DNA of 35,958 bases from Tannerellaceae bacterium. GTDB taxonomy: Bacteria; Bacteroidota; Bacteroidia; Bacteroidales; Tannerellaceae. The DNA is taken from NCBI GenBank assembly GCA_031280435.1, contig JAITGS010000109.1:1-35958 (forward strand), written 5' to 3'. Below are positions 73 to 31,277 of the stretch, in pieces (position 1 is the first letter of the stretch; every line of letters starts with the position of its first letter). The notes beneath the pieces were generated by a model. It did not search any database. It was not told the DNA's origin and saw nothing but the letters and a program-made list of their open reading frames with translations. A program made the position numbers and the translations under genes.

Positions 73-459
73 TTAGTTTACTTTCTTAATTGGAATTGAC
101 CTGTGTCCGTGCCGCAGGCAGTATTCGCCAGCCGGTAGCTTTGACAGATTGGGTTTCTCACCTGCTTTCACGGAGGTACGCCACGCTTCCTTCCCTTCGG
201 GGGTATAGACAACCACATCGCCGCCTGTGTACGATGCTATGGGGAAATAGTCCGCAACTTCCGCCTGCCTCTCGCCCGTAGAGACGTTGCATGCAACGTC
301 TCTACATAATTGCGCGGACGGCTGTTCCGTAGAGACGCAAAATCTTGCGTCTCTACCGGTCGCATTCAACACCGGTGTAGTCTGTGCACCGGCATTCATC
401 ACTGACAGCCCAAATACGATAGTCAGGCAGGCCGTCTTCAAAAAAATCTTTTTTCTCAT
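73..459 (-). CDS. Small secreted protein with T9SS-like C-terminal tail
   Basis: 128 aa when started at the ATG that begins a typical signal peptide (MRKKIFLK, hydrophobic core, cleavage near NAGAQ, residues 1-25). A longer reading from 543 would put non-signal sequence in front, so 459 is preferred. The C-terminus (residues ~98-128, with LSKLPAGEY and a final basic KK) resembles the end of a Por-secretion (T9SS) sorting domain, but the protein is far too short to be a normal cargo plus tail. Residues 35-44 (GRDARFCVST) and 52-61 (CRDVACNVST) are translations of two REP-like palindromes inserted in the gene. It is probably a remnant or degenerate cargo gene; function unknown. Confidence 0.55.
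   Translation of the reverse strand: MRKKIFLKTACLTIVFGLSVMNAGAQTTPVLNATGRDARFCVSTEQPSAQLCRDVACNVSTGERQAEVADYFPIASYTGGDVVVYTPEGKEAWRTSVKAGEKPNLSKLPAGEYCLRHGHRSIPIKKVN
278..305. repeat. REP-like palindrome, copy 1 (inside coding sequence)
   Basis: A 28-nt perfect palindrome with outer arms GTAGAGACG / CGTCTCTAC and core TTGCATGCAA. It is bounded by GTAG/CTAC, the tetranucleotide that marks REP sequences used by REP-associated tyrosine transposases. It is read in frame on the minus strand as CRDVACNVST within the small secreted protein. Confidence 0.9.
329..356. repeat. REP-like palindrome, copy 2 (inside coding sequence)
   Basis: 28 nt with the same GTAGAGACG / CGTCTCTAC arms, 12-nt paired arms in total and an AATC centre. 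It lies 51 nt (17 codons) from copy 1, start to start, and is read in the same frame as GRDARFCVST in the small secreted protein. Confidence 0.9.
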
Positions 460-529
460 ATAATAAACAGTTTGCGGACTTGCACCGCGCCGTTCCTTGG
501 ACGGCATCTTGGGTTGTAAAATGTTTGTT

Positions 530-558
530 GTAGAGACGCCCAAATTGGGCGTCTCTAC
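530..558. repeat. REP-like palindrome, copy 3 (intergenic)
   Basis: 29 nt with 14-nt arms around a single A; the core is CCCAAATTGGG. It is identical to copy 5 inside the transposase gene. It lies upstream of the small secreted protein (start 459) and downstream of the decayed tail at 580-640. This is the only one of the five copies outside a convincing coding region. Confidence 0.9.
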
Positions 559-579
559 GATTAAGGGTGCGTTAATAAC

Positions 580-640
580 CTATTTTACTTTTTGAAATGG
601 GATAGACCCGTGCCCCGGGCGGTATCCTCTTTCAGGCAGA
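580..640 (-). pseudogene. Decayed duplicate of the T9SS-like tail
   Basis: On the minus strand this reads LPERGYRPGHGSIPFQKVK and then a TAG stop. It parallels the end of the neighbouring gene (LPAGEYCLRHGHRSIPIKKVN), and the flanking DNA (a shared gttaata motif and downstream codons) aligns too. The frame differs from the repeat ORF just upstream and meets a TGA within the 42-bp array, so no intact protein joins this tail to a signal peptide. This is most simply a duplicated and eroded copy of the 73-459 gene's 3' end. Confidence 0.55.
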
Positions 641-937
641 GCCGTCAACATTGTTGAAAGCTCCACCGACTTGCTCGATCATGCCGCCAACATTGTTGAA
701 AGCTTGATCGACTTGCTCGATCACGCCGCCAACATTGTTGAAAGCTCCACCGACTTGCTCGATCACGCCGCCAACATTGTCGAAAGCTTGATCGACTTGC
801 TCGATCACGCCGCCAACATTGTCGAAAGCTTGATCGACTTGCTCGATCATGCCGCCAACATTGTCGAAAGCTTGATCGACTTGCTCGATCACGCTTTCGA
901 CATTGTTGGCGATGCCCTGCATTTGATTCGGCCCCAT
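632..937 (-). CDS. Possible repeat protein with 14-residue coiled-coil-like units
   Basis: An open frame of 101 aa from ATG at 937 (MGPNQMQG...). It is mostly six copies of a 14-residue unit of the type VIEQVDQAFDNVGG. The hydrophobic positions I2, V5, F9, V12 follow a strict 3-4-3-4 heptad spacing, as in a coiled coil. It has no signal peptide and no recognised domain. It begins just after the transposase gene (stop at 963). The opposite strand is also open across the array because the unit length is a multiple of three, so an open frame alone is weak evidence. Treat it as a candidate small protein only. Confidence 0.25.
   Translation of the reverse strand: MGPNQMQGIANNVESVIEQVDQAFDNVGGMIEQVDQAFDNVGGVIEQVDQAFDNVGGVIEQVGGAFNNVGGVIEQVDQAFNNVGGMIEQVGGAFNNVDGSA
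641..892. repeat. 42-bp tandem repeat array, six units
   Basis: Six consecutive 42-bp units start at 641, 683, 725, 767, 809 and 851. A degenerate seventh follows to about 916. Units differ at a few sites: CTCCACC versus CTTGATC, GTT versus GTC, and a terminal CAT versus CAC. Most contain the inverted repeat GATCGA-CTTGC-TCGATC. Together with palindrome copy 3 and the decayed tail, this fills the stretch between the genes ending at 963 and starting at 459. Confidence 0.92.
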
Positions 938-962
938 GACCGAACCGACTGTTGTGCCGTAG

Positions 963-1667
963 TCATGATTGTTCAAATAATTCGTCCTCATTCCAATTTT
1001 GTGGATTGTTGATAATGTATTCGGCAATGCGTTGCCATTCGTCTTGATTGCGAATCAGGCGGTCGTGGAAACGGGTTTGCCATGCAAATGCGGCGTGGAT
1101 TGTTCGTGTTTCAAACGTCACGCGACCTTTGTACCAGCGTATCACACGCGACAGATTGTTGTTCAACATTGGATTTTTGTTTCCCGTAACACCACCTGCC
1201 GTATGGGCCACCGTAGAGACGCGATTAATCGCGTCTCTACAATCCGCGTCATCACCGGAACAAACGTCATCACCGGAACAAACGCCAATACAATCCGCAT
1301 CATTATCAGGTTTGTTGATAACGATTATCCCGTGCACGTGGTTGGGCATAATCACAAATTGATCCAATACAACAAAAGGGAAATGCGCCGGTATTTGTAG
1401 CCAGTATTCATGGGCGATTTGTCCGATTTCGGATAATTGCATTTCGCCCTGCACAATGCCGCCCAAAAACGGTTGGCGGCGCGCCGTGCAGATGGTGACG
1501 AAATAGGCGGCATTTGCGCGGTAATCCCAATCGCGCCACCGCGCCGAAGGGATGCGGTATTTGCCAGCGTATTTGTTGTCCGCGTTGTTGTCCGCGTTGT
1601 TGTCCGCGTAGAGACGCCCAAATTGGGCGTCTCTACCATGCGCCTGTGTGTTCCTGTTATAATCCAT
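963..1667 (-). CDS. REP-associated tyrosine transposase (RAYT, Y1/IS200-like)
   Basis: 234 aa, Y1_Tnp family HUH single-strand nuclease. The HUH motif is H110-V-H112 in MPNHVHGIIVI, and the likely catalytic tyrosine is Y217 in IAEYIINNPQNW. The N-terminal YFVTICTARRQPFLG strand is typical of RAYTs. Such proteins cut and join at GTAG-type REP hairpins, and five matching palindromes lie within 1.4 kb. Two sit inside this gene and are translated: residues ~11-20 (GRDAQFGRLY) and ~143-152 (CRDAINRVST). The region also carries small in-frame repeats (DNNA x2 then DNK near residues 22-32; CSGDD x2 at 130-140). The ATG overlaps the stop region of the upstream DUF4465 gene by 11 bp, so it may be co-transcribed with the B12 locus. 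The catalytic residues are intact; activity with the extra insert is uncertain. Confidence 0.88.
   Translation of the reverse strand: MDYNRNTQAHGRDAQFGRLYADNNADNNADNKYAGKYRIPSARWRDWDYRANAAYFVTICTARRQPFLGGIVQGEMQLSEIGQIAHEYWLQIPAHFPFVVLDQFVIMPNHVHGIIVINKPDNDADCIGVCSGDDVCSGDDADCRDAINRVSTVAHTAGGVTGNKNPMLNNNLSRVIRWYKGRVTFETRTIHAAFAWQTRFHDRLIRNQDEWQRIAEYIINNPQNWNEDELFEQS
1213..1240. repeat. REP-like palindrome, copy 4 (inside the transposase gene)
   Basis: A perfect 28-nt palindrome with GTAGAGACG / CGTCTCTAC arms and core CGATTAATCG. It is read in frame on the minus strand as CRDAINRVST. It lies next to an 18-bp direct duplication (about 1249-1285, ATCACCGGAACAAACGTC type) that encodes the CSGDD repeats. 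Confidence 0.92.
1608..1636. repeat. REP-like palindrome, copy 5 (N-terminus of the transposase gene)
   Basis: 29 nt, identical to copy 3. It is read in frame as GRDAQFGRLY near the transposase N-terminus. A 12-bp tandem micro-repeat (TTGTTGTCCGCG, about three copies at 1573-1607) adjoins it and encodes ADNNADNNADN. Confidence 0.92.
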
Positions 1668-9116: not shown

Positions 9117-9358
9117 TTTTTAGAATTTTTAAGGAATGGCGTTAATGAGCGACGATTTTCCGGAGCCACTGAAACAGTGTCGGTGGGCCCAAATAATTGT
9201 CGCGAGCCGTTGACACTGTGTCGATGGCGTGCGACAATTGTCTGGAGCCACTGAACCCGTTTCGAGGGCGTGCGACAAGTGACGGGGCCCACCGACACTG
9301 TGTCGATGGCTCCGGAAAGTCGTCGCCCATTAACGCCATTCCTTAAAAACTCTAAAAA
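9117..9358. repeat. Large nested inverted repeat (~74-bp arms)
   Basis: The left arm at about 9117-9190 and the right arm at about 9285-9358 are near-perfect reverse complements, with about six mismatches by eye. Both contain AAGGAATGGCGTTAATG, CCGGAGCCA and CAGTGTCGGTGGGCCC blocks. The 94-nt centre holds a second hairpin (AATTGTCGC at 9195-9203 with GCGACAATT at 9231-9239) and further copies of the GGAGCCACTGAA and TGCGACAA words. There is no coding potential beyond chance frames. It sits between the divergent B12 promoter and the promoter of the next gene. It could be a MITE-like element, a structured RNA, or a two-way terminator. Confidence 0.88.
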
Positions 9359-23456: not shown

Positions 23457-23532
23457 AATTCCCAAATTCAAAAAAACTCTCCGGCTTAAAAGATTATTTT
23501 CCCTAAAGACCTGAAAACAAAATCAGAATTAC

Positions 23533-23763
23533 AACGAGATTGTTGCCGAGTACAATGAGATTGTTGCCAAGTACAACGAGATTGTTGCCGAGTACAACGG
23601 GATTGTTGCCGAGTACAACGAGATTGTTGCCGAGTACAACGAGATTGTTGCCGAGTACAACGAGATTGTTGCCGAGTACAATGAGATTGTTGCCAAGTAC
23701 AACGAGATTGTTGCCGAGTACAACGAGATTATTGCTGAATACAATTGGAATATTCCTGAATAC
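23533..23763. repeat. 21-bp tandem repeat array, eleven units
   Basis: Eleven 21-bp units begin at 23533, with consensus AACGAGATTGTTGCCGAGTA followed by C. The units at 23554 and 23680 are identical variants (AATGAG... / ...CCAAG), 126 bp or six units apart, suggesting block duplication. The last units degenerate, and a poor twelfth runs to 23784. In one forward frame it reads NEIVAEY heptads, but a stop lies at 23512 and no ATG follows. The rest of the 690-bp gap (23361-24050) holds only the queA terminator and the next promoter. Confidence 0.93.
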
Positions 23764-31141: not shown

Positions 31142-31277
31142 TTGACGTCAAGTTGCGGCTGCTTGACGTCAAGTTACGGCTACTTGAAGTCAAGTTGTGA
31201 CTACTTGACGTCAAGTTACGGCTACTTGACGTCAAGTTACGGCTGCTTGACGTCAAGTTACGACTGCTTGACGTCAA
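31142..31277. repeat. 21-bp array of TTGACGTCAA palindromes, seven sites
   Basis: Six full 21-bp units (starts 31142, 31163, 31184, 31205, 31226, 31247) and a final half unit (31268-31277). Each begins with the perfect 10-bp palindrome TTGACGTCAA, except the third, which has TTGAAGTCAA. Sites are exactly 21 bp apart, i.e. two helical turns. The spacer is GTTACGGCTAC with small changes. Translated forward it gives LTSSYGY heptads, from a TTG start only. In the rest of the gap 30895-31447 I see only the next promoter. Confidence 0.93.

What the first reader, a model, noticed from the sequence alone, without database searches (positions are those of the whole stretch)
278..1636. GTAG-bounded palindromes read in frame as protein, beside a RAYT
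Seen: five 28-29-nt palindromes share GTAGAGACG / CGTCTCTAC arms but differ in core (TTGCATGCAA, CAAAATCTTG, CCCAAATTGGG twice, CGATTAATCG). Four lie in coding regions of two unrelated proteins, all in the same frame, giving (C/G)RDA-x-x-x-(R/V)(L/S)(Y/T). Known: REP sequences with a GTAG foot are the substrates of REP-associated tyrosine transposases, and Rickettsia palindromic elements show that repeats can invade coding frames. Inference: this RAYT family disperses a REP that tolerates or favours insertion in frame, adding short peptides to proteins. The compensatory cores (arm fixed, core varied but still paired) suggest that structure is selected.
Basis: partly seen in the sequence, partly recalled or inferred. 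Interest (0 to 1): 0.8.

Follow-up and report, generated by a model that had tools for sequence, protein, structure and literature searches.

The report
Transposase gene carrying its own hairpin
The repeated hairpins are the known partner repeats of a transposase-like protein; they mostly lie between genes, and the few inside genes sit chiefly in the transposase gene itself, where the DNA hairpin rather than the short peptide it encodes appears to be what is kept.

Summary
The five palindromes are real and far beyond chance, part of a family of 86 in this 83%-complete genome. The neighbouring gene is a REP-associated tyrosine transposase (RAYT/TnpAREP) with the motif marks of subclass 2.4 of Quentin et al. 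2018, who already described 'double-foot' REPs in frame inside such genes. The shared frame is not general: of 77 of 106 RAYT genes with a REP-like hairpin in the same loop, 52 read GTA|GAG, 25 read xGT|AGA and none the frame in which GTAG gives a TAG stop. Structure does look selected: hairpin arms in RAYT genes are more alike (0.81-0.83) than the genes' conserved coding parts (0.56-0.57), whether or not frames agree, and the core type follows the RAYT tree (9 changes; 31 in shuffles). In 9 of 39 genomes checked the RAYT's hairpin is the only full-footed copy. I infer that this RAYT gene carries a hairpin for its protein, kept as DNA in disordered protein linkers. Whether it serves as substrate reservoir or self-regulation is untested, and dispersed copies do not simply match the RAYT's core.

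The parts
963..1667 (-). RAYT / TnpAREP gene (234 aa), motifs NHVH, WQ and YIINNP
   Evidence: NCBIfam NF047646 E 2.9e-15, 56.4 bits, below its cut-off of 80; Pfam Y1_Tnp only 15.2 bits, below its cut-off of 23; AlphaFold model matches 4er8, RAYT bound to a REP hairpin, first in PDB, E 9.5e-6, TM 0.61 by target; profile hit to 4er8 E 1.8e-7
1213..1240 (.). double-foot REP, core CGATTAATCG, in frame in the loop between HuH and Y motifs (residues 143-152)
   Evidence: residues 126-154 have pLDDT below 50
1608..1636 (.). double-foot REP, core CCCAAATTGGG, in frame in the RAYT N-terminal extension (residues 11-20)
   Evidence: residues 1-25 have pLDDT below 50; directly abuts a 12-bp tandem array at 1573-1609
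530..558 (.). double-foot REP, core CCCAAATTGGG, outside called genes
278..305 (.). double-foot REP, core TTGCATGCAA, inside a small unverified ORF
329..356 (.). double-foot REP, core CAAAATCTTG, inside the same small ORF
73..459 (-). small ORF (128 aa from ATG) with signal-peptide-like start; carries two REPs between signal peptide and C-terminal part
   Evidence: no Pfam or NCBIfam match; no orthologue found in 99 relatives beyond two partial weak hits; not called as a gene
1247..1284 (.). 18-bp tandem repeat (2.1 copies) beside the loop REP
1573..1609 (.). 12-bp tandem repeat (3.1 copies) abutting the N-terminal REP

Best explanation
The palindromes are double-foot REPs (GTAG at one end, its complement CTAC at the other) that a RAYT of the subclass 2.4 kind processes as single-stranded hairpins. 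Most copies are scattered between genes. The copies inside coding sequence sit chiefly in the RAYT gene itself, in two disordered linkers of the protein, above all the loop between the HuH and Y catalytic motifs. There they are inherited with the gene and kept as a DNA (or RNA) hairpin, not as a peptide; the only coding constraint is to avoid the frame in which GTAG makes a TAG stop. Shown: location, frames, excess conservation, paired changes, match of core type with RAYT lineage. Inferred: that the protein acts on the hairpin in its own gene, and that this copy serves as a carried-along substrate and founder of dispersal, or for self-regulation. The varied cores of the window come from several REP lineages coexisting in one genome rather than from one element drifting.
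For: 86 copies genome-wide, 30 with core CGATTAATCG as in the RAYT loop; 2 of 85 in called genes, both in the RAYT. Of 106 intact RAYT ORFs (36 of 51 related sources, 70 of 80 named loci) 77 have at least 13 of 18 REP-arm letters in the loop, against 3 of 106 shuffled loops; 43 of the 77 pair at all 13 positions; frames 52 / 25 / 0. Paired changes at nearly every stem position. Arms 0.828 alike in same-frame pairs (1,297) and 0.811 in different-frame pairs (1,031), against 0.572 and 0.564 for the conserved coding parts and 0.49 codon identity at identical residues. Core type 9 changes on the RAYT tree against 30.7 in shuffles, 0 of 500 as low (51 of 69 rows). In 9 of 39 RAYT genomes the in-gene hairpin is the only full-footed copy, checked by coordinates. 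Near 70 named RAYTs, 51 palindromes lie in 46 kb of RAYT ORF, 8 in 292 kb of other long ORFs, 27 elsewhere. Both window REPs in the RAYT fall in the two predicted disordered segments.
Against: No binding, cleavage or movement was tested. Dispersed copies do not follow the RAYT's core: in this genome the commonest core is CGATGCATCG (37), not the RAYT's; G118, whose RAYT loop has a TTGCA core, holds 13 GATTAATC copies; extra GATTAATC copies occur in 3 of 12 genomes with a GATTAATC RAYT and in 3 of 27 others. 14 of 38 REP-bearing relatives have no RAYT match. About a quarter of RAYT loops (29 of 106) lack a recognisable REP. Frame is itself clustered on the tree (9 changes against 17.4), so it is partly inherited. 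Palindromes were found by being paired and by motif, which inflates their likeness. The tree is weak (59 of 102 inner branches unsupported).
Confidence: 0.72

Rival explanations
1. Neutral by-product. RAYTs insert REPs often into their own gene (near, transcribed, single-stranded), and insertions survive only in disordered linkers and open frames; nothing is kept for function. This is close to the reading of Quentin et al.
For: Insertions are confined to linkers and to the two frames without a stop; several genes have a second REP in the N-terminal half (14 outside the loop); presence changes at least 20 times on the tree.
Against: A neutral insert should decay like its surroundings, yet the arms are much more alike than the coding parts and 43 of 77 are fully paired. 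In 9 of 39 genomes there is no other full-footed copy from which it could have been renewed. Core type tracks RAYT lineage. Repeated recent re-insertion from another genome remains possible.
Confidence: 0.2
2. One reading: a mobile REP that favours in-frame insertion into proteins and so adds short peptides, like Rickettsia palindromic elements.
For: Two copies lie in one frame in a small secreted-looking ORF besides the RAYT; intragenic REPs in many genes are published for other genomes (Di Nocera 2013).
Against: 83 of 85 copies outside called genes; frame not fixed across RAYTs; the second protein has no orthologue to show insertion.
Confidence: 0.05
3. The encoded peptide (VETxHALSL or xRDAxxxVST) is what is selected in the RAYT loop.
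For: Frame is clustered on the tree and GTA|GAG is twice as common.
Against: The same DNA is read as different peptides in related RAYTs (window and L076 against L109, same core, other frame), and arms are as alike in different-frame as in same-frame pairs; the loop is predicted disordered.
Confidence: 0.03

Closest known systems
TnpAREP / RAYT subclass 2.4 (Quentin et al. 2018, PMC6006769; group 4 of Bertels) with double-foot REPs
   Same: HuH motif NH[IFV]H, WQ, YIxNNP; GTAG...CTAC double-foot REPs; REPs in frame within the gene between HuH and Y; Bacteroidetes and Cyanobacteria among carriers (passages seen)
   Different: Nothing that excludes membership. I did not see these points in the passages read; the supplements were not seen.
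GTAG REP families and intragenic REPs (Di Nocera et al. 2013, PMC3733652)
   Same: GTAG-tagged palindromes linked to RAYTs; some lie inside ORFs in frame (abstract, passages and section 15 seen)
   Different: Their GTAG motif is unpaired at one end; here both feet pair. Their text as seen lists GTAG repeats in other phyla, not in Bacteroidetes.
Rickettsia palindromic elements
   Same: Palindromes read in frame inside proteins
   Different: Those decorate many unrelated genes (as told; size and detail recalled); here only the RAYT and one unverified ORF are hit among 85 copies.
REPINs (Bertels and Rainey 2011, PMC3116915; seen in search listings only)
   Same: RAYT-linked short mobile repeats
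   Different: A REPIN is a pair of inverted REPs with a spacer (recalled); here a single perfect palindrome, which Quentin et al. suggest could arise by deletion between two inverted REPs.

Membership tests
TnpAREP subclass 2.4 (Quentin 2018) | HuH motif NH[IFV]H, WQ, and YIxNNP | tested here: met
   NHVH, W196-Q197, YIINNP
TnpAREP subclass 2.4 (Quentin 2018) | double-foot REP, GT[AG]G...C[TC]AC | tested here: met
   all five window palindromes; 86 in the genome
TnpAREP subclass 2.4 (Quentin 2018) | REP inside the gene, in frame, between HuH and Y | tested here: met
   1213-1240 at HuH+34 residues
TnpAREP subclass 2.4 (Quentin 2018) | position within the subclass 2.4 clade of the published tree | not tested
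   the published reference sequences were not fetched
RAYT, NCBIfam NF047646 | score over the curated cut-off of 80 bits | tested here: not met
   56.4 bits in two stretches, split by the loop; the name RAYT here rests on fold, motifs and Quentin's scheme
RAYT | fold of a Y1 HuH transposase / TnpAREP | tested here: met
   first Foldseek hit 4er8, E 9.5e-6
RAYT | binds and cleaves its REP hairpin | not testable with these tools
   bench test
canonical single-foot REP | unpaired GTAG beside an imperfect hairpin | tested here: not met
   GTAG pairs with CTAC in all five predicted folds
Rickettsia palindromic element-like | in-frame copies in many unrelated genes | tested here: not met
   2 of 85 copies in called genes, both in the RAYT

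The most novel reading that the evidence does not exclude
This RAYT lineage keeps a functional hairpin inside its own coding sequence, selected as nucleic acid and indifferent to reading frame: a transposase gene that carries its recognition site within the ORF, so that gene and site travel together between phyla, seeding new REP populations or throttling the enzyme by binding (or nicking) its own gene or message. Nicking there would also make the in-frame tandem arrays that border it.
Probability: 0.35. Interest if true: 0.75.

Novelty: new member of a known kind. Interest (0 to 1): 0.42.

Why it matters
It settles that in-frame REPs here are not a general way of adding peptides to proteins: they cluster in the RAYT gene. 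It also turns a published oddity (REPs inside tnpAREP) into a testable claim: a DNA hairpin held under selection inside a coding sequence without regard to the reading frame. If the in-gene copy is functional, it would explain how RAYT and REP stay linked and bears on the open question of what RAYTs do for their hosts.

Tried and rejected
In-frame dispersal as a general habit: rejected by the whole-genome table. The caller is home-made (3-periodic Markov model trained on 176 long frames from the same stretches), so small genes can be missed; 1 of 86 copies was not in the fetched stretches. A fixed RDA-type peptide: rejected.

Orthologues of the 128-aa ORF without the inserts: sought, none found, so insertion there cannot be shown.

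Cognate pairing of dispersed copies with the RAYT's core: looked for with three core patterns in 39 genomes, not supported. Only three of six core types were searched, exact matches only.

The arms sequence was sought in papers (143 papers, the 30 listed are unrelated by title; 3 papers, not opened): no report of this repeat was recognised there. Passages of PMC9067536, which notes palindromes over cas genes, were seen; no link was established. Searches gave no other paper on in-gene REPs that I recognised; only open-licence papers are held.

An error of mine: searches placed two genes (L110, L139) at the wrong copy of the palindrome; one search repeats both with this mended, with nearly the same numbers, and only one search is cited for them. 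Motif-based and geometric frame counts differ slightly (first loop palindrome 49:20:22).

Selection of samples: the 80 named loci are the best 80 of 524 by likeness to the window RAYT. 15 of 51 related sources and 10 of 80 named loci had no intact HuH...Y frame by my motif and were dropped. 18 of 69 palindromes of 'other' core were dropped from the core test. 18 pairs at 70% protein identity or more were dropped. L144 was read at a second RAYT of the same locus.

Full report
What is there. Five palindromes of 28-29 nt share the arms GTAGAGACG / CGTCTCTAC at the stated coordinates. Ten arms in 36 kb against 0.17 expected rule out chance, and each folds into a strong single-stranded DNA hairpin in which both feet are paired. 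The window is contig C139 of a 3.06-Mb draft, 83% complete. It is probably a member of the Bacteroidales (my inference from T9SS sorting domains and from relatives named); the organism itself is not named by any search.

The gene beside them. ORF 963-1667 (minus) is a RAYT. NF047646 matches at E 2.9e-15 but below its cut-off, because the match is split by a loop; Pfam Y1_Tnp is below its cut-off too. Its AlphaFold model (mean pLDDT 78) has as first PDB match 4er8, the RAYT bound to a REP hairpin, and a profile of the family finds 4er8 alone in the PDB sequences at E 0.01. It has NHVH, WQ and YIINNP, the marks that Quentin et al. 2018 give for subclass 2.4 (passages). Two of the five palindromes lie in this gene: 1608-1636 in an N-terminal extension (residues 11-20) and 1213-1240 between HuH and Y (residues 143-152). 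These are inside the two segments predicted to be disordered, 1-25 and 126-154.

Where the copies are. The genome holds 86 palindromes with exact arms: 37 with core CGATGCATCG, 30 with CGATTAATCG, the rest rarer. I fetched the surroundings of 85 and called genes with a codon-periodic model: 2 of 85 lie in a called gene, both in the RAYT, though 77% of the fetched DNA is called as coding. Of the other 83, 22 lie between genes of one direction, 7 between convergent, 8 between divergent genes, and 46 lack a called gene on one side of the stretch.

Link with RAYTs. Among 100 related genomes 38 have the palindrome and 33 a RAYT match; 24 have both, 14 the palindrome alone, 9 the RAYT alone, 53 neither, p 8e-7 (1.6e-6 without the own genome). 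Kinship and completeness are not corrected for. A broader arm pattern is found in 49 of 100.

Frames. In 36 intact RAYT ORFs from 51 related sources, 18 have a full palindrome between HuH and Y: 15 read GTA|GAG, 3 read xGT|AGA. The window RAYT and L076 share core and frame; L109 has the same core in the other frame. I added 70 intact ORFs from 80 named loci, whose titles name Bacteroidota and also Gammaproteobacteria (Crenothrix), Chloroflexi, Chlorobiota, Balneolaceae, Planctomycetes (Kuenenia), KSB1, Marinimicrobia, Patescibacteria and Cyanobacteria; many are MAGs, so single cases may be mis-binned. By arm likeness 77 of 106 loops hold the REP (3 of 106 in shuffled loops), 69 of them 28 nt and 8 of them 29 nt long; frames 52 / 25 / 0. 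Zero in the third frame follows from the stop TAG.

What is conserved. In 61 even-centred loop palindromes, stem positions vary mostly as pairs, for example A-T/G-C at positions 5, 7 and 9. Arms are alike at 0.828 (1,297 same-frame pairs) and 0.811 (1,031 different-frame pairs); the conserved coding parts at 0.572 and 0.564; codons at identical residues at 0.488 and 0.487. Arms exceed the coding parts in 1,257 of 1,297 and 965 of 1,031 pairs. Since palindromes were found through pairing and a motif, part of this excess is ascertainment; the equality between same-frame and different-frame pairs is not easily explained by it. On a tree of the RAYTs built without the loop, the core type needs 9 changes against 30.7 in shuffles (51 of 69 rows). 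Frame needs 9 against 17.4, so it too is partly inherited. The tree is poorly resolved.

Is the in-gene copy drawn from a dispersed population? In 39 RAYT genomes a full-footed pattern counts exactly 1 in 13. For 9 of these the single copy is by coordinates the one in the RAYT gene; in G108 it is another; for G110, G125 and G129 the place was not listed. In 7 of 39 there is none, the RAYT's own copy having altered feet. So the in-gene hairpin can persist without dispersed ones. Against a simple picture: extra copies of a core do not follow the RAYT's core (GATTAATC: 3 of 12 genomes with such a RAYT, 3 of 27 others; G118 has 13 copies with a TTGCA RAYT), and in the window's own genome the commonest core is not the RAYT's.

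Neighbouring tandem repeats. In the 106 RAYT genes I find 75 tandem arrays, 72 with a period divisible by three, 68 in the HuH-Y loop (27% of length), and 51 of the 58 in palindrome-bearing genes lie within 60 nt of a palindrome. Of 7 arrays outside the loop, 4 lie beside one of the 14 palindromes outside the loop, the window gene among them (12-bp array at 1573-1609). Genes without a loop palindrome have arrays less often, but not rarely (14 of 37 against 36 of 69). Slippage or nick repair at the hairpin is a guess.

Known or new. REPs inside tnpAREP, in frame, between HuH and Y, double-footed, in Bacteroidetes and Cyanobacteria: published (PMC6006769, passages). Intragenic REPs in other genes: published (PMC3733652, abstract, passages, section 15). 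Frame indifference with conserved arms, core-lineage match in this subclass and the sole-copy state I did not see in those passages nor in the listings; supplements could not be read. The finding is therefore a new member of a known kind, with a sharper hypothesis about it.

Noticed in passing
window 641-894: 42-bp tandem repeat, 6 copies, coding a 14-aa repeat (VIEQVDQAFDNVGG) in ORF 632-1027 minus; the stretch after it resembles the C-terminal end of the neighbouring 128-aa ORF in another frame (by eye).
   Followed up: no
window 23530-23744, 31142-31277, 9149-9310: Further tandem arrays: 21 bp x 10, 21 bp x 6.5 and a degenerate 41 bp x 4.
   Followed up: no
L074 (G000:C75:2740-3378): The genome's second RAYT belongs to another clade (HHRRSIR-type start in kin) and has no double-foot palindrome in its loop by the search.
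   Followed up: partly
RAYT genes, e.g. L109, L112, L113, L093: In-frame tandem arrays adjoin the in-gene hairpins, which may explain the variable loop length that Quentin et al. noted.
   Followed up: partly
L119, L132, L139, L175, L182, L203: A second site for REPs in RAYT genes, 46-55 residues before HuH; in L119 it reads CRDAINRVST in a turn where kin have no insert.
   Followed up: partly
G127 (L144), G132 (L169): Two genomes with very many full-footed palindromes, 99 and 69.
   Followed up: no
G000 contig ends: Many palindromes lie within a few hundred bases of contig ends in this draft, so the repeat probably breaks assembly and copy number is a lower bound.
   Followed up: no
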